Below, piece after piece: positions 3,719 to 11,900 of a stretch of DNA of 64,000 nucleotides. The DNA comes from Monosporascus cannonballus. Lineage: Eukaryota; Ascomycota; Sordariomycetes; Xylariales. Each line of letters begins with the position of its first letter. The first letter of the stretch is position 1. The stretch is taken from contig QJNS01000143.1 in NCBI GenBank assembly GCA_004154925.1, positions 140,235 to 204,234 of the forward strand, in the 5' to 3' direction. A program made the position numbers and the translations under genes. The notes below the pieces were generated by a model. The model was not told where the DNA came from. It was given only the letters and a program-made list of their open reading frames with translations, and did not search any database.

Positions 3719-4755
3719 TATAAAATATAACTTATTTGAATTAAAATTATATCATTATAAAAAATTAATCCTATTATTTTAATATTTCTATTGACTGAAT
3801 TATAGTTTTATTTATTATATAATAATTTTCATAAATGCTTAACACTTTAAATATATCGATATTATTCAATCATAAACTCGAAAATAATAAAACTTTATTT
3901 AGTAAATAAGAAAAGTAGTTACGGTTAATTTTTAAAATTATTTTAATTAAAAAAATTGAAATTATGAAAAATATATATATATATATAACTATTCGGATTG
4001 TTATTGTTACGAACTTATTTCATTTTCTTTCTCGTATTATATAATTATTATTTTTAAATGTATAATTATTGGTTTTAAAATTTAAAATTAATTAAAAATA
4101 ACGGTTTTTACAAAACATTAAGTTTCGTTTAAAATAGTATAAATTATTTCAATGTCGAATAATAATCTTTCTAGCAAACAGGAGAATTTTCTTTTATAAA
4201 AATTGTAAGTTTTTCGTTTAATATATTATAATATTTACATATAACGAGGTTTTAACTAATCGGAATTAAAAACTCTTATTAACCCTTGTATATTAATAAA
4301 TTTTACATATTTACTTTTTTAGAAAATGTTAATTAACCCATTAATTTGAATAATTAAATACTTTAATTAGTTATTATTTTCGTAAAAAAATATATTTATA
4401 AATACAGTTTTAAATATTGCATTAAATCTTTTATGTTAATAATAAAAATTTAATATATGCGTAAGTATATTTTGATTTAAAGATACAACGTAAACAAATT
4501 ATAACTTAAATTTGTTATATTTTAAAAAATAATAACATACTAAATTTAAGCTATATTTAATATATAATTTAAAATTTAAAAACAATAAACGAATTTTAAT
4601 TAAAATTAAAATAATATTAATAATAAACTATAATTGAAATAATCGTATTAATATATATATATAGTTATAAAAATATTTTGATATTAAGTTATTATAAGTT
4701 TTTGTTTTTTTTTAAAAAAAAAATAACAGCACTAAACGAAAACGTTTTTGTGCAA
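3719..4755. other. AT-rich desert
   Basis: No gene or repeat was recognised. There is a short TA dinucleotide run near 3974-3988. The composition changes abruptly at about 4760, where the island begins. Confidence 0.5.
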
Positions 4756-4761
4756 TTATAA

Positions 4762-4879
4762 CTCAGGCTTCACTGGCTCGTTACGGGGATTTGGGATTTG
4801 ATTGGTTAATATTTAGCGTTATAGAGCGATACTTGAGTGACTTTGAAGAAATTGGGAAAACGAGCCAGGGAGGCCTGAG
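4762..4879. repeat. Inverted repeat at the island's left edge
   Basis: CTCAGGCTTCACTGGCTCGTT at 4762-4782 is matched in inverse orientation by 4859-4879, with a mismatched block of about four bases in the middle of each arm. The loop is about 76 bp. This is the size and form of a small MITE or a transposon terminal structure. It marks the point where AT-rich DNA gives way to ordinary composition. Confidence 0.55.
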
Positions 4880-5501
4880 GTAACTTGTGCACGCCCTGGA
4901 TGGAGGGGCACAGCGCACATGTGGACCCACATTTCCAAGAACCAGTTCTCGTCCCCCTCCATCAGAAGCACGAGCTCTGACATCTTCCGTTTTCCATCTT
5001 CCTGCTTCGCGTTTCCTGTTATCCACAATGTGCTCATCCAGCGTCCAGAAATGGCCGTTGGGGGTTAAATTCGTCGGAATGGCCTCCACCCTTAAATGGC
5101 GGGAAGTGCCTCTATGCCTGTACGTTCCGCTCGCTCGCTTTTCTTCCTGTCTCTCGACAGATTCATCCTCACATTCTCGTTTCGCTGGGAAAAGTCATGT
5201 ATTTCAATTATCGTGGTTTTTAAACGTTTCGCGGTGTCAAATACTCTGGCTGGACAATGTCCCACGTAATCGCCCCTTTACGCACCCGACCAGCAACCGC
5301 AAGTCTCATCCAGGAAAGCTATGCCGCCTTCCTTTAACACTTTGTAACACGAAAGGCAAAAAATCGAACTACTAAATAAAAGCCGACATTCTCGGTTAAG
5401 AAATATGCCGCTCACCAAACACAGTTAAGCAACGTCCGCTTTATCAAACCAAAATATTCCCACGAAAAGGAAATTAATGTTAGCGGGATATTTAAAAAGT
5501 G
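4880..5501. other. Ordinary-composition DNA without a convincing gene
   Basis: GC content is ordinary and there are no RIP marks. Open frames exist on both strands over the same bases (4887-5375 plus, 4781-5089 and 4819-5037 minus). None shows a recognisable domain and none clearly beats its antisense competitor. It could be a fragment of a gene with introns or the remains of a mobile element. Confidence 0.4.
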
Positions 5502-5689
5502 TGTCGTGGAATAGGGTCATCTGTGTTAGTCATCAAGCTCTACAGCACCCCGGAAAAACCTTATTCCGGCGCGCTCACAGTATATAGAGAGCTTCCTAGC
5601 TACAGCTCCCTAGAGCTTAATTCTAGTCAGACAATTATCACTTCCCACATTCTATGCAACCTTTTCCCGCGATCAGCCTAACTGTGACA
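5502..5689. repeat. Solo LTR, unmutated copy
   Basis: A 188-bp unit begins TGTCGTGG and ends CTGTGACA, so it has TG...CA ends with TGTC/GACA inverted termini. It is bordered by AAGTG on the left (5497-5501) and AAATG on the right (5690-5694), a 5-bp target duplication with a single G-to-A difference. No internal retroelement sequence lies on either side, so it is a solo LTR. A heavily RIPed relative of almost the same length is at 57625-57811. A 60-residue frame crossing it is a by-product and not a gene. Confidence 0.75.
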
Positions 5690-5827
5690 AAATGGAAAAG
5701 GTAAATACAGTTGTCATAAAGTAAATACAAAATATCTTGGAATTTTCGTGAAATGCGATTACTAATCTTTTATGGCAACTCGGCAGATTTTACGAAAACC
5801 TAAAGGTTAGCGACTGGGAGGTAACCA
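5690..5827. other. Spacer between solo LTR and recombinase remnant
   Basis: Ordinary-composition spacer with no recognisable feature. It does not match the DNA that follows the RIPed LTR partner at 57812 onward, so only the LTR is shared between the two places. Confidence 0.4.
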
Positions 5828-6357
5828 TCGAAATCTAAAGCGCGAAACGACACAGAAGTTCTTCCTCTACTTTTGCGAGAATTTGAAAATTACATCATGG
5901 GTACCGGCGAAAAGTATATTCGTCAATTCCAGCAACTATATACGACCGTAACTGGGCAGTATATGGATCGAAATGATACTAAAAAAGCATGCAAGGTGCA
6001 TAAATGCTTCGGATTCTGCATACGGCCGGCAGGGTTTATAACATACAAATGGTTAATGTCAAATAGTATTACCGATATATTCTGATTCCTCGCTTTGGTC
6101 ATCGCCCCCCAAACCTCGAGGGCAAGCCGGTGCTAAACGTGGATAACTTGCTTGTTATCTTAACCTTCAACATCCCATACGATGTCAGCATCTTTCCCGG
6201 CGAACGACACCGCATACAGTTCACCTGCTGCTATCAACTTCTCTGCTATACTGGAGCACGACCAGCTGAGCTGGTAGATGGCGAACGGAAGAAACCGAAA
6301 GACGCATCGGCCGAGCAGCATTTTGGTGAAGGAGTATCTAAAATCAGCGAATATTAA
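5828..6357 (+). pseudogene. DUF3435-type tyrosine recombinase remnant
   Basis: The reading frame through 5828-6083 contains an internal ATG at 5897 and the words RQFQQLYTTVTG and MDRNDTK. After an apparent 2-base insertion near 6081 it continues in another frame from 6085 to 6357 with PPNLEGKPVLNVDNLL, YTGARPAELVDGERKKPKD and a stop. These are characteristic of the N-terminal part of DUF3435 proteins, the tyrosine-recombinase-like family that includes the captains of Starship giant mobile elements. The catalytic C-terminal half is absent: just after KKPKD the sequence passes into a different gene. There is no C-to-T decay here, so the damage is by indel and truncation. The family call rests on remembered motif similarity. 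I cannot tell a captain from other DUF3435 members. Confidence 0.7.
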
Positions 6358-7244
6358 GCCCAGCTTTTGTGACGATTTACAAGAGCAAAGGGCGGAACAA
6401 ACCTTCGCAAAGGTCTGTGTGACCTGCCTGCTCCGGATTAAAGAGAACAGCATGGCTGAGCTTATCCGACATCAATTTCCCTTTGCGCAGTACTGTTCAG
6501 AGAACTGGTATATCTACAGTGCCATGCCAAGAACGGAGCCTAATAGACTTCATACTAGAATAATGGAGCTGCTGAGCTGGAACGAAGTTTCTGTTGCTAA
6601 CTCTATCTGTCTTTACCCAATGGATCGGCGCGGGCGACTCAAAGGCGCAAGCCATGGCCTTGCACCTCCGCTATATTATGCCTCGTTTTCAGGCCTGTCC
6701 ATTGAGGTAGGGGCACTCCTTGACCAGGGCGCAAATGTCAACGCGGAAGGGGGGAGAGTACGGCAATGCTCTACAAGCTGCTTCTTTTAAAGGGCACAAT
6801 GAGATCGTGGAGATGTCCTAGCTAGTGGCGCAATTTTTGAGGAGCAGAGAGGACATTACGGCAATGCTCTACAGACTGCGTCTTTTAAATGACATGATGG
6901 AATTGTGGAGATGCTCCTGGCCAATGGCGCAAATGTCAACGCGCAGAGCGGATTTTGCGGCACTGCTTTACAGGCTGTTTCTTCTAAAGAGTACGATACG
7001 ATTGTGGAGATGCTCCCAGCCTATGGCGCAACTGTTAAGGCGCCGAGCAGATGCTATAGACCCGATGGTGATGCTCTGCAGGCTTCTTCAGGAGGGGCAC
7101 GATAAGATTGTCGAGATGCTCCTAGCTAAGGGCGCAAATGCTAACGCGCGGAGCAGACGCTATGGCACTGCTCCACAGGCTGCTTCTTCAGGAGGGCACG
7201 ACAAGATTGTCGAGATGTTTCGAGAGGGCCACGCACGGTCGTAG
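6358..7244 (+). pseudogene. Broken NACHT-ankyrin (NLR-like) gene, C-terminal part
   Basis: The first frame contains EQRAEQTFAKVCVTCLLRIK, FAQYCSENW and PPLYYASFSGL. This is the linker between the NACHT domain and the ankyrin repeats of fungal NLR-like proteins. About five ankyrin units follow, recognisable by GNALQAASFKGH, IVEMLLA and GANVNA. The frame changes near 6752, a base is missing near 6817, a TGA stop interrupts a repeat near 6890 and an extra base near 7098 shifts it again. The final unit ends early at 7244. The NACHT domain itself is missing and the 5' side abuts the DUF3435 remnant. Intact relatives act in self/non-self recognition and programmed cell death. This one is dead. Its lesions are indels and a transversion, not RIP. 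Confidence 0.75.
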
Positions 7245-7520
7245 GCTAGGTGACTATAGCAACCTTTTCACGGTCAGAACATCTGCATGACACGTCTGCC
7301 TATTCTGCGCAACTGCGAAGGTTCGATATTCCTCCCTGGGAATCTTGCAGCCATGTTAGTGCAGCCCGTTTCTCTCGCGCTATAACGTAGAGAGATTCGA
7401 GTGTCCGTTCTGGTCTCGTGTAGATCTGGTAGCAAGACAATGTCTTTTCGAATCTCATTAGATGCTCCGAATACAGCATAGTATATCCGTAATGCGTGTG
7501 TGCAGATTCCCAGTCAGGGC
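7245..7520. other. Spacer downstream of the ubiquitin hydrolase gene
   Basis: Ordinary-composition DNA between the convergent ends of the ankyrin pseudogene and the reverse-strand hydrolase gene. It probably includes the 3' untranslated region and polyadenylation region of the hydrolase. No specific signal can be claimed. Confidence 0.4.
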
Positions 7521-8305
7521 CTAAGGCCTGCGAGCCAAAGCAATGCAGCTAAAACGAAGGTTCTCTCCTCCTTCATCCGTGTTCAATTTCATGATCCTCT
7601 TGATGCCCATGTCAAGCGCTCGCGGACTGAGAACGTCCTCGTCGTCAGCAAGACTTCCTCTCTCCAGAGGACCCTTCCTCGACCCTTCAAGCTCCCAGAG
7701 CTTCCCACCGCTCTTGACAAAACTCACAAAATGCCCACCATCACGCTCATCCGTCGGATCCGCATAGCTGTCGCCGGCCTGCTCGACCGACTTGTGAGCA
7801 AGTTCGAATGGCTCGCTGTTGTACAGCATTTCGGCGCGTTTGGTCATATCTAGCGGTATGGCGAGGCTTCGTATCGCCGCGAGATCGGAATCACGCTTGA
7901 TAAAGTCGACGGCCGGACCGTTGATCAAGCTATGGAGCAGACCGATCGAGCCGCAGGCGTGGCCGATGGTCTGCTTGAACCAGATAACCGGCTCGTCAGG
8001 GCCGAAGCCAGTGTAGGGTTCTTTGTTAGCGTCTTCGGCCTTGCGACTTCGATCCCAAGCTGGTGTGAGTGGAATGATGACCAGCAGAGCCAGGGCAGGT
8101 CGAGGGATATGTGAGAGTAGTTCGGGTTCATCCAGGGAATAGACGTCATAGAATTGGAGCTCGGACGATAGACCCAACTTCGTTGCCAATTGGTTCATTA
8201 CATCGGGGTTGTTCTCTGCCATTTGCGATGAGTTTCTACTCAAAGACAAGTGATCCATGAGGGCTTAGGTCCCTTACCAAGCATTACCCATGTCTTCTTT
8301 TCCAT
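7521..8305 (-). CDS. Ubiquitin C-terminal hydrolase (UCH, peptidase C12), two exons
   Basis: Exon 1 is 8305-8278 and exon 2 is 8215-7521, on the reverse strand. The 62-bp intron (8277-8216) has GTAAGG and CAG borders. Splicing gives 240 residues beginning MEKKTWVMLENNPDVMNQL, the usual UCH start. The unspliced frame from an ATG at 8258 lacks this motif and is the less likely model. UCH enzymes are cysteine proteases that free ubiquitin from small C-terminal adducts and precursors, in cytosol and nucleus. Visible are the oxyanion Gln91 and nucleophile Cys97 (KQTIGHACGSIG), His171 (GGHFVSFV) and WELEGSRKGP, where Glu186 stands at the place of the usual catalytic Asp. Length and domain are complete, with no stops and no RIP marks. 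It is the only intact gene in the window, isolated among transposon debris. Yeast YUH1 belongs to the same family; orthology is not proven. Confidence 0.88.
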
Positions 8306-8540
8306 TTTGGGGAATCAATAGATGGAGGATGTCGAAAATTCAGGAATGTTGGGGGAAGGAGATGGTGTAGAGATTGCAGGATCTGATTCTTAGAGCTATC
8401 ACAAAACAGGGCGCCCGACAGTAGCTGTGAGATGATCAAAGACTACCATTGCGGGAAGCTGGATGTCGTGATACAAGTGGAGAGTCGTACTCTGCTCGCG
8501 GGGCGATATTTATCCGCGCCGGTCTCCGCCTCGATTTTGT
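8306..8540 (-). promoter_or_regulatory. Upstream region of the ubiquitin hydrolase gene
   Basis: On the reverse strand the stretch just upstream of the ATG is pyrimidine-rich (around 8340-8375, with CTCCTTCCCCC). Such tracts are common near transcription starts of filamentous fungi. No defined factor site or TATA box can be claimed. The region ends at the Tc1-like fragment, so the available promoter is short, a few hundred bases at most. Confidence 0.35.
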
Positions 8541-8543
8541 AAA

Positions 8544-8804
8544 ATAAACAACACCATTCTTAGGTACCTGATTGGTCTAGGCAATGAACTAACACCCATT
8601 CAAAGGGCAAGTATCATCGGTGCCCATCAGAATAGAGTTCCACTAACGGAGATCTCAAAAAGCACAGGAATTCCGCTCGGTACAGTCAAATATATGTGGA
8701 AACAGCGGAATCGCCGTGCAGAGCATCGGCAAAGGTCTATTCCGCGTAACCACCCTCGAAAAACGACTTCAGCCCAAGATGATATAGAACCTATAGACAC
8801 CTAA
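8544..8804 (+). pseudogene. Tc1/mariner-type transposase stump (HTH domain)
   Basis: An open frame, without a clear ATG, contains LTPIQRASIIGAH, LTEISKSTGIPLGTVKY and a basic tail with HPRKTTSAQDD. This is the N-terminal helix-turn-helix DNA-binding region of Tc1-like transposases. The frame stops at 8802-8804 just after that region and the DDE catalytic domain is absent. The transposon ends were not found. The fragment has ordinary composition, so it escaped RIP, probably because it is short. Its 5' end lies close to the presumed promoter of the reverse-strand hydrolase gene. Confidence 0.7.
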
Positions 8805-8848
8805 GAATCCGGCCATTTACGACATCCTAGGGTTTGCACTACCTACCC

Positions 8849-8929
8849 ACCCACGCTAGAATTTCCACCCACGAGTACCTACGCACCCCTGCCACCCACC
8901 CGTGAGTAGGTAACAGGGATGCGTAGGTA
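8849..8929. repeat. GGGTAGGTA-rich inverted repeats, hAT-like ends
   Basis: TACCTACGCACCCCTG at 8876-8891 and CAGGGATGCGTAGGTA at 8914-8929 are 16-bp inverted partners with one mismatch, separated by 22 bp. More CCTACCCACCCACG-type words lie at 8850-8875. Ends starting CAGGG would fit hAT transposon termini. The arrangement looks like the right end of one element facing the left end of another. It lies exactly at the island's right border, after which the DNA is AT-rich. Confidence 0.5.
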
Positions 8930-11900
8930 AAACGAAACTATTTACGAAGTAATTGCCTATAAGTAATAAAAAAGCTAAATAGTTAACCACTTATAAGTAC
9001 TTGTTTATAATATTAATATTGATTATATAAAAATAAATGATTTAAAATTTGAAAAAATTTAAATAATATTAAATTACAATGAAATAAAAAGCTTTTAATA
9101 TTAATATTAAAAATAAACATATTTAATTATTATATATAATTTTATTAACTAGTTTGATAAGTATAATTGTATATTCATTTTGGTATTACTTAAATTGTTT
9201 ATAATTTTCGTATATAAAATTAATTTAATTTAAATATGAATTAAATTAATCACAAAACCTTTATTTAAAATTCTATTAAATTATATATATATTTTTAAAT
9301 ATTACTTCTTGATTTAATTTTAAATTATAAAAATATTTTAAAATATCTTATTTTTACAGCATATTTTTATTTTATTTTACAATTTTTAATATTAATTAAC
9401 GTATTAATACTAAACTTTACACACTAAGTAAAATAGAATTTATTTTATTATTTTTGGAATTTTTTAAGTCTTGTCAATATACGTCGTTTTGCGATTTTAT
9501 TGCTTAATATTTCGAATGTAATAGATGTTTTCAGAAATTCTGTAAATAATTTAGCCGATAATACCGGATTACGATAAATTATTTAAATTTATAAACGTTG
9601 TATATCCAGTATATAAAAAATTAATGATATATATTTAGGTATTAATGTAAATATATTAATGAAATGGCAATAAAAATAATTCGGTTTTTTTCAAAAACTT
9701 CTATAAATACTTAATCTAATTGTAAAGTTATGGCGTTAAATAAATATTGAATATTTTTATATATAAAGTATTAAAAAAGCCTTAAGTATTACAACAGTAT
9801 GATATTTTTTTAATACTGAGTTTTCGAAATAAATTAATTTAAATTAAAAATATTAAAATGAATAAAAAAATAACAAATAAAACTTAAGTAAATACATATT
9901 CTTTTCTAAATAAAGCTTAAAATATTTATTATATGGTTTTTACCGTATAAGTTTTTTGATTTTACCGACTATTTATATCAGTATTCTTTTACTTTTAGTT
10001 TTAATGTTGTTTATATTTTTAATAAAGTTATATTCTAAAGAAAATATTTACTTTTAACGTATTAAGTATCCAAAGATAATGCAATTTTAAATTATGTTTA
10101 ATGTAATATTTTATTGTTAAAATATTATATAAATTTATGAAAGCATTTACTAACGAATTATTATGTATATTACATGTAAACATCATCGATTATTTTTAAA
10201 AATTAATAACAAAATTGAAGTTAATAACAAAATCAACATTAATTTATTAAAATTGATATTAAGATATATTTCCATATAATTTGGAAAATAATTTTTGCAA
10301 TAGATAAGGCGAAATAAAATTCTTCCGATAAGATAAATAATTTGATTTTCAATTTATTTCTTTTTAAAAAACATTATAAATACATATTTTATTTTAATAG
10401 ATAATAAATATTTAACTATAAAGTGTTATTGCTTTTTTAATGTTTTATTTATGTTTAACACTTAAATCAGTTGGTAGTCATAATAAATTAAATTTTGATT
10501 ATATACTAATTTTTCTCTACGTCTTTTTTTAAAATGAAATTAATTATATTTATATTTATTTTAGTACTTATTTGAAATATAATAATTTGAGCAGCAGCTT
10601 AAACATTCCTAAGGTTGCCGATAATGAAAATGATGTTCAAACTTTATTTTTCTGTCCATTTATTATTAACGTTTCGTAATTTAGATAAATTTCTCATTTC
10701 AGAGTAGTGGTATTGAATATCAAATTATTATATTTTTTAATTTATGTAGAAAAGAAAAGAAAAAAAGCGTATATTCACAATAAAATATAAATGTATTAAG
10801 GTAATGCAAAGTTTTATTTATTTTATTAATATGATAATAATCTCAATATAGAAATAATTACATATTAATACGACGAATTTAAAAAAAATAATTTTACATT
10901 AGATAAATATATAAAAATAGTGTATATTAAAAATACCGTGATGTATTAAATAATATAATAATTTTTATATTCACAATGTGAATAATCTGTCTTTTTTTAA
11001 ATTATAATTACCTGTTTACTTTCAATCTTAATTAATATTAAGAATTTATAAAATCGAAACATTATATTATTAATCATAATTTTCGAGAAACGTTGATAAA
11101 TAAGTTAATTATAAAATAATTTGGTAACCTTTATTCTATTTATAATAAGATGAATAAATTATTTAACAAGTAAATTATTTTAAAATTAAAAAAATAGTTA
11201 TAAATAATTAAGTTAAAAGTGTTTTTTATTTATAAAAATATAATATCGTTTTCGAATCGGATAGAAAATATACAAACGTTACAAAAATAAAATAAAATTT
11301 GATATTTTCGAAATCTTTAACTTTATAATGTTAATAGAATTGAAAATGATTTTAATCAATTAAAAATCATATTTCTTAAAAATTAAATAATAATATATTA
11401 ATACATATTTTATTTTATTTATATATTTCATATCTGTAAAAATACGATTTGATAACTTTATTGTTTTAAAAATATATAATTATAAGTTCTTTCTCTAAAT
11501 GTTATAGGTATTATTAATAAAGATTTTTAAGATAAAATAATTAAATTATTTACAATATGTTTAAAAACTTTCGTAATTTCGAGAGTAGCACTTTTTATAA
11601 TATACATAATTTTAAATTATAAATTCTATTTCATAAATTCGAATAAATATATATATTACAAAACTTGAACAGGCTTATGTGTTTTCACTAATGTATGGCA
11701 ACGTTTAAAGTTTTAACATGCTTTTTCTTTAAATAAACGATATATATATGTCTTTAAATTAATATTATATACGAGGATTACAATTAGAATATATTAAGAA
11801 TAATTTAAATTAAATTAAACAAAAAACTAAATCGAAATTTAATATATTTTTATTAATTAAGATATAGAATTAGAGGTATTTTGTTGGAATATAATTAATA

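What the first reader, a model, noticed from the sequence alone, without database searches (positions are those of the whole stretch)
5828..7244. DUF3435 recombinase remnant joined to a broken NLR-like gene
A DUF3435-type recombinase fragment runs, without a spacer, into the C-terminal part of a NACHT-ankyrin gene. Both families are typical Starship cargo, and DUF3435 proteins include the captains of those giant elements. The join sits within tens of bases of 6340-6390. It may be a deletion junction inside a dead Starship or a recombination scar. The damage is by indels and not RIP, so it is younger than, or exempt from, the RIP that erased the surroundings.
Basis: partly seen in the sequence, partly recalled or inferred. 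Interest (0 to 1): 0.75.

Follow-up and report, generated by a model that had tools for sequence, protein, structure and literature searches.

The report
Broken recombinase joined to immune-gene relic
In a fungal genome, the front half of a dead mobile-element recombinase gene has been joined straight onto the back half of a dead immune-receptor-like gene; the scar looks real, but nothing tested here ties it to a giant Starship transposon.

Summary
The front part of a DUF3435 gene meets the back part of a fungal NLR-ankyrin gene at window 6326 +/-2, with no spacer. DUF3435: 6067-6357 gives no Pfam hit alone, but matches 12 other contigs of the genome at 44-74%. The best, C281, runs on into a PF11917 match. 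The gene starts further left than reported (flank from 4880, coding from about 5302) and is split by a 188-bp LTR-like insertion, 5502-5689. NLR: relatives P0002, P0004 and P0006 continue upstream of 6326 with NLR-like sequence and no DUF3435. Homology runs to 7287 and weakly to 7430. The join changes frame; both halves are pseudogenes. A dead Starship is not excluded but gains no support: DUF3435 and NPHP3_N loci lie no closer than chance (2 observed, 1.66 expected within 50 kb), no element ends were found, and DUF3435 genes are reported to be more usually 'solo' (passage). Best reading: an ordinary illegitimate-recombination scar. The odder neighbour is an intact UCH peptidase gene (7521-8264) whose tree partly crosses fungal classes.

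The parts
4740..4885 (.). terminal stretch of a many-copy repeat, ending in an inverted repeat (CTCAGGC..CTGGCTCG / CGAGCCAG..GCCTGAG); left border of the GC-rich island
   Evidence: 38 of 40 listed matches cover about query 1-146 at 91-94% identity (40 of 432 candidates scored); the inverted repeat was read by eye
4880..5301 (+). 5' flank of the DUF3435 gene, shared with the C333 copy
   Evidence: C333:153183-153793 71% identical to 4880-5498; no flank similarity seen in the fetched C281 and C8 loci
5302..5501 (+). first coding piece of the DUF3435 gene, with two in-frame stops that are CAA-to-TAA changes relative to C281
   Evidence: aligned to C281:23625-23821; frames and codon-position spectrum 18/5/35 over 60 codons
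5502..5689 (.). 188-bp LTR-like insertion (TG...CA ends) inside the DUF3435 gene, flanked by AAGTG / AAATG
   Evidence: 43 further rows (only 40 of 960 candidates scored); 18 of 20 full copies checked have perfect 5-bp duplications; window copy differs from the consensus at 8 of 188 sites
5690..5802 (+). probable DUF3435 remainder, too eroded to align well
   Evidence: weak, gapped stretch in the third alignment
5803..6327 (+). main DUF3435 piece, two 1-bp deletions and an eroded intron-like region relative to C281; ends shortly after the GARPAE motif
   Evidence: about 70% DNA identity to C281:23910-24453; protein 6067-6357 74% to C281
6324..6328 (.). join between the two genes; frame changes; bases GGT/GTG would fit both sides
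   Evidence: DUF3435 DNA alignment ends at 6327; NLR protein alignment starts at 6326
6326..7290 (+). back part of an NLR-like gene: hinge region plus about six degenerate ankyrin repeats (counted by eye), broken by frameshifts
   Evidence: P0001 94%, P0004 87% over 53 aa from 6326, P0003 100% at 7231-7287; Pfam ankyrin
7291..7430 (+). weaker continuing similarity to NLR relative P0007
   Evidence: one alignment, 44% over 107 columns at 7110-7430
7521..8264 (-). intact UCH (peptidase C12) gene, convergent neighbour; not shown to belong to the join
   Evidence: PF01088 E 2.2e-50 covering 5-210 of 211

Best explanation
This is a double pseudogene made by illegitimate recombination. A DUF3435 tyrosine-recombinase-type gene lost its back half and an NLR-ankyrin gene lost its front half when a deletion or translocation joined the two at 6326 with at most a few bases of shared sequence. 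Shown: two unrelated gene families, a sharp join, a frame change, and the LTR-like insertion. Inferred: that the join arose by end joining, that it was a deletion or rearrangement rather than a transposition, and that neither half has a function now. The DUF3435 part was under protein-level selection for much of its history since it split from C281, and died late (inferred from the codon-position spectrum).
For: DUF3435 alignment ends at 6327 and NLR alignment begins at 6326. In 8 of 9 other own-genome contigs compared, DUF3435 runs on past the point of the join (C256, C28, C7, C250, C113, C48, C333, C8; C322 stops before it; C168 and C578 were not given). The 3 of 7 NLR relatives that reach upstream of 6326 continue as NLR-like sequence, without a DUF3435 match. 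DUF3435 and NLR frames differ. Differences from C281 by codon position are 14/9/44 over 87 codons. Both families are dispersed in this genome: 17 PF11917 rows and 90 NPHP3_N rows. Their proximity is at chance level: 0, 2, 2, 3 observed within 10, 30, 50, 100 kb against 0.34, 1.01, 1.66, 3.18 expected under uniform placement.
Against: The missing halves were not traced: the best other place for the NLR front half is 34% identical, and no DUF3435 back half is in the window. DNA of the NLR relatives was not available, so shared sequence at the join is not measured. The protein searches take only candidates of 0.55-1.75 times the query's length, so a long protein spanning both parts could not have appeared. 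An intact UCH gene with a partly class-crossing tree lies next to it, which would fit mobile cargo.
Confidence: 0.72

Rival explanations
1. Deletion junction inside a dead Starship: the DUF3435 gene was the captain, the NLR (and perhaps the UCH gene) was cargo, and a deletion removed the DNA between them.
For: Fitting orientation (DUF3435 gene in front, NLR on the same strand behind it). No close second copy of this NLR found in the assembly. C281 and C152 each have an NPHP3_N locus about 26-27 kb from their DUF3435 match. The adjacent UCH gene has a tree that partly mixes fungal classes. PMC12134995 reports one putative NLR on a Gaeumannomyces Starship (passage).
Against: No element ends, direct repeats or empty site found. 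Left border is the end of a many-copy repeat. DUF3435-NPHP3_N proximity over the genome is at chance. DUF3435 genes are more usually solo (passage). No DUF3435 locus of the 20 counted has an NPHP3_N locus within 10 kb.
Confidence: 0.15
2. The DUF3435 fragment (with its 5' flank) was inserted as a captured or filler piece into the 5' end of an older NLR locus, perhaps carried by the repeat whose end lies at 4740-4885.
For: The NLR 3' side resembles that of relatives (P0003 to 7287, P0007 weakly to 7430), so the right side may be the resident locus; a repeat end abuts the left side.
Against: No copy of the repeat carrying DUF3435 DNA was seen; the search with 4887-5500 found only C333 besides itself (it also missed the coding similarity to C281 and C8 that a local search shows), and the DNA left of the C333 match does not look like that repeat (by eye). 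None of the 120 UCH relatives listed of 1317 has the same longest-contig length as an NLR relative.
Confidence: 0.08
3. Assembly chimera: the join does not exist in the living genome.
For: No other sequence with the join was found; the outside DUF3435 proteins are at most 83% identical.
Against: Few or no close copies of either half were found in the assembly, the join lies outside the two repeats mapped here, and it is inside a 204-kb contig.
Confidence: 0.05

Closest known systems
Solo DUF3435 (PF11917) tyrosine recombinase genes of Pezizomycotina, including degenerate ones
   Same: Sequence family; dispersed copies, several with stop codons inside
   Different: Only the front half is left; joined to another gene; no C-terminal half in the window
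Starship captains and derelict Starships
   Same: DUF3435 family; AT-rich surroundings; an NLR fragment on the same strand behind it
   Different: No element ends, direct repeats, empty site or cargo block shown
Fungal NLRs with NACHT/NPHP3_N, winged helix and ankyrin repeats
   Same: Ankyrin repeats; relative P0004 aligns over 202 aa (31%) with own-genome locus L064, about 330 bases downstream of its NPHP3_N match
   Different: Nucleotide-binding and N-terminal domains absent; frames broken
Solo LTRs or small non-autonomous LTR elements
   Same: 188 bp, TG...CA ends, perfect 5-bp target duplication in 18 of 20 copies
   Different: No internal region or coding partner was looked for

Membership tests
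DUF3435 (PF11917) | Pfam profile match of the window fragment itself | tested here: not met
   0 families at E<=10 for 5825-6085 and 6067-6357
DUF3435 (PF11917) | close homology to genes that carry PF11917 in continuity with the matched part | tested here: met
   C281 74% and PF11917 98.8 / 97.7 bits in the same gene; 15 of 31 outside hits carry PF11917
DUF3435 (PF11917) | full tyrosine recombinase catalytic set | tested here: not met
   the C281 C-terminal frame has no match at E<=0.01 in the 64-kb window
Starship element | DUF3435 captain as first gene at the 5' end | tested here: inconclusive
   gene orientation fits; 5' side ends at a many-copy repeat
Starship element | flanking direct repeats / TIRs and an empty site | not testable with these tools
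   no related genome held for this fungus (note); right-hand end unknown
Starship element | candidate cargo (NLR) linked to DUF3435 genes more than by chance in this genome | tested here: not met
   2 of 20 DUF3435 loci have an NPHP3_N locus within 50 kb, 1.66 expected; NPHP3_N only, uniform model
Fungal NLR | NACHT or related nucleotide-binding domain | tested here: not met
   no such match in the window frames, nor in P0002/P0004 by Pfam at E<=1
Fungal NLR | C-terminal ankyrin repeats behind a winged-helix/hinge region | tested here: inconclusive
   ankyrin repeats met; the hinge matches P0004, whose upstream part resembles NLR locus L064, but Pfam names no winged helix there
LTR retroelement (solo LTR) | TG...CA termini and short fixed-length target duplication | tested here: met

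The most novel reading that the evidence does not exclude
The 4-kb GC-rich island is what remains of a DUF3435-driven mobile element that carried an NLR and a class-crossing UCH peptidase gene (with a conserved Asp-to-Glu change in the motif aligned with ELDG of UCH-L3). The UCH gene alone stayed intact after the captain and NLR collapsed into each other.
Probability: 0.12. Interest if true: 0.6.

Novelty: new member of a known kind. Interest (0 to 1): 0.27.

Why it matters
Joins of this sort show how recombinase genes and immune-type genes decay in a genome with much RIP-like DNA, and they warn against calling Starships from a DUF3435 gene next to an NLR. If the neighbouring UCH gene proves to be cargo of a mobile element, it would be a deubiquitinase moving between fungal classes, worth testing in its own right.

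Tried and rejected
One ordinary gene covering both segments: rejected, because own-genome DUF3435 copies run on as DUF3435 and NLR relatives run upstream as NLR; the outside protein searches could not have shown a much longer spanning protein (length limits). A fusion protein in use: rejected, since the frames differ and both halves carry frameshifts and stops. The missing NLR front half elsewhere in the genome: best 34%. Missing DUF3435 back half in the window: not found. A relative of the NLR linker among 12 own-genome NPHP3_N loci: tblastn gave ankyrin matches and chance-level ones only, and a recalled residue pattern gave none. A solved structure for the DUF3435 C-terminal frame: one weak match, E 0.11. 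Rfam on the window at gathering thresholds: none. Papers holding DUF3435, zinc finger, RIP and pseudogene together: none. UCH as Starship cargo: the UCH term had 0 occurrences in all 15 papers listed of 18; a further search on UCH and horizontal transfer listed 4 papers, none opened.

Full report
The window is the last 64 kb of contig C62 (204,234 bases) of an unnamed fungal assembly of 88.8 Mb in 618 contigs. That it is a fungus is inferred from its genes. The finding lies in a GC-rich island (about 4740-8880, GC 0.38-0.54 per kb) between AT-rich DNA (mostly GC 0.08-0.30). The composite RIP index is +0.46 to the left and +0.31 and +0.59 to the right; in the island it is negative except at 5300-5500 (+0.12) and in the repeat (+0.15).

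DUF3435 part. Homology settles it. The 96-aa frame 6067-6357 matches C281 at 74% and eleven other contigs at 44-69% with E 5.7e-15 or better (16 rows including itself and three weak ones). At C281 this part overlaps a PF11917 match in the same frame. Outside the genome it finds 31 proteins, 15 with PF11917; the best is 80% identical (P0008, Bionectria ochroleuca) and the highest identity is 83% (P0024, over 63% of the query), so none is another strain's copy of this locus. DNA alignment to C281 covers 5302-5501 and 5803-6327 at about 70%. The 5' flank from 4880 is shared with C333 (71%). The search with 4887-5500 found only C333, though it also missed the coding similarity to C281 and C8 that a local search shows. 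Differences from C281 pile up in third codon positions (14/9/44 over 87 codons; 18/5/35 over 60), so I infer that the copies diverged mostly as working genes and that the window copy died late. It now has two stops in the 5' piece (CAA to TAA relative to C281), two 1-bp deletions and a shortened intron-like region. That GARPAE holds a catalytic Arg is recalled.

Insertion in the DUF3435 gene. 5502-5689 is a 188-bp repeat with TG...CA ends. One search lists 43 further rows (only 40 of 960 candidates were scored). Twenty full copies from the 19 loci fetched for it were examined: 18 have perfect 5-bp flanking duplications, one has 3 of 5 and one 1 of 5. The window copy has AAGTG/AAATG, 4 of 5, and differs from the consensus at 8 of 188 sites. 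The other copies differ at 2 to 22; these figures rest on 19 of the 20, since the two L023 copies shared a name and one was overwritten in the script. It behaves as a solo LTR or small LTR element; no internal region was sought.

NLR part. 6822-7244 and 6893-7105 exceed Pfam ankyrin cut-offs. 6278-6790 finds 7 outside proteins. P0004 aligns from exactly 6326 at 87% over 53 aa; P0001 (94%) covers the start of the ankyrin part; P0003 matches 7231-7287 at 100%; P0007 gives weaker similarity to 7430. P0002, P0004 and P0006 extend upstream of 6326 and show no DUF3435 match. P0004 aligns over 202 aa (31%, E 8e-18 in a 12-locus set) with own-genome locus L064, about 330 bases downstream of its NPHP3_N match; in the whole genome its best other place is the same contig stretch at 34% (C256:416136). 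The winged-helix name for this region is recalled; Pfam at E<=1 names no such domain in P0002, P0004 or P0006. P0004, P0005 and P0006 are themselves frame-shifted relative to the window, so this NLR lineage decays elsewhere too.

The join. The DUF3435 alignment stops at 6327 and the NLR alignment starts at 6326; the bases GGT/GTG would fit both, but the DNA of the NLR relatives was not available. The DUF3435 frame ends at a stop at 6357, and the NLR frame is a different one, so there is no in-frame fusion. In 8 of 9 other own-genome contigs compared, DUF3435 continues past this point; C322 stops before it; C168 and C578, also found, were not given to that call.

Is it a Starship? What could be tested is neutral or against. 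DUF3435 loci (20, gathered, the two C333 hits counted once, the finding itself included) and NPHP3_N loci (77, collapsed by hand from the 90 rows) lie within 10, 30, 50 and 100 kb of each other in 0, 2, 2 and 3 cases, against 0.34, 1.01, 1.66 and 3.18 expected under uniform placement. The two cases within 30 kb are C281, the closest relative by protein, and C152; this is a weak point in favour of the Starship reading. Element ends, direct repeats and an empty site could not be tested, since no related genome is held. Passages of PMC12134995 state that DUF3435 genes are more usually solo and that captains are scattered among them, and report one putative NLR on a Starship. PMC11905480 (passages) reports no consistent clustering of captains against other recombinases. 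PMC11620798 (passages) describes a captain at the 5' end of an element with flanking duplications. Passages of PMC12258605 discuss NLR clusters and unequal crossing over as a route of NLR turnover; 'Starship' has 0 occurrences in its main text. PMC12153272 (passages) has 0 occurrences of NLR, ubiquitin and DUF3435.

RIP. In the 5' piece the polarised changes are few: C>T 4, all before A (9 of 20 C sites are before A); G>A 4, three after C and one after A. In the second piece there are 4 G>A (two after G, two after C) and 6 A>G; in the third 4 C>T, three before C and one before G. Nothing here is decisive. Several paralogues (C8, C48, C256, C113, C28) are visibly AT-shifted with TAA stops.

Neighbour. 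7521-8264 (-) is an intact UCH peptidase gene. It is 93% identical to a Phaeosphaeriaceae protein, 89% to one named for A. fumigatus and 91% to one named for Verticillium albo-atrum, but only 62% (broken copy, C598), 53%/43% (C168) and 29% (C81) to other places in its own genome. A tree of 49 rows (window, 39 named and 9 unnamed of the 120 listed of 1317 hits; classes assigned by me from genus names) mixes four classes. Two starred clades cross classes, and holding the 13 Aspergillus rows together is rejected at p-AU 0.018, a test chosen after a first tree was seen. Against this, labels are more clustered than by chance (all groups 19 changes against 29.7 shuffled, as low in 0 of 200; Eurotiomycetes 6 against 12.3), only 5 of 46 branches are starred, and the bootstrap had not settled. 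All 49 have Glu where C168, C81 and UCH-L3 (1uch) have Asp in the ELDG motif, with Q, C and H kept; that this Asp is catalytic is recalled. This could be horizontal movement or hidden paralogy. Nothing but position ties it to the join.

Verdict.

Noticed in passing
window 7521-8264 (-): Intact UCH (peptidase C12) gene whose protein tree partly mixes Eurotio-, Dothideo-, Sordario- and Lecanoromycetes, and which is far from the other UCH copies of its own genome.
   Followed up: partly
window 7521-8264 (-): All 49 members compared (chosen from the top 120 hits) carry Glu instead of Asp in the ELDG motif, with Q, C and H kept.
   Followed up: partly
window 5502-5689: 188-bp LTR-like repeat with 5-bp duplications, 43 further rows, few differences from its consensus in a genome with much RIP-like DNA.
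   Followed up: yes
window 4740-4885: End of a many-copy repeat with an inverted repeat of about 19 bp.
   Followed up: partly
window 8472-8804 and about 8822-9000: Helix-turn-helix frame like a transposase N-terminus (Pfam matches below cut-off) next to a many-copy repeat.
   Followed up: no
L079 / L031 / L006 (C333:151-171 kb): The C333 copy appears split: 5' piece at 153.2-153.8 kb, middle at 161.2-161.6 kb, C-terminal DUF3435 match at about 169-170 kb.
   Followed up: partly
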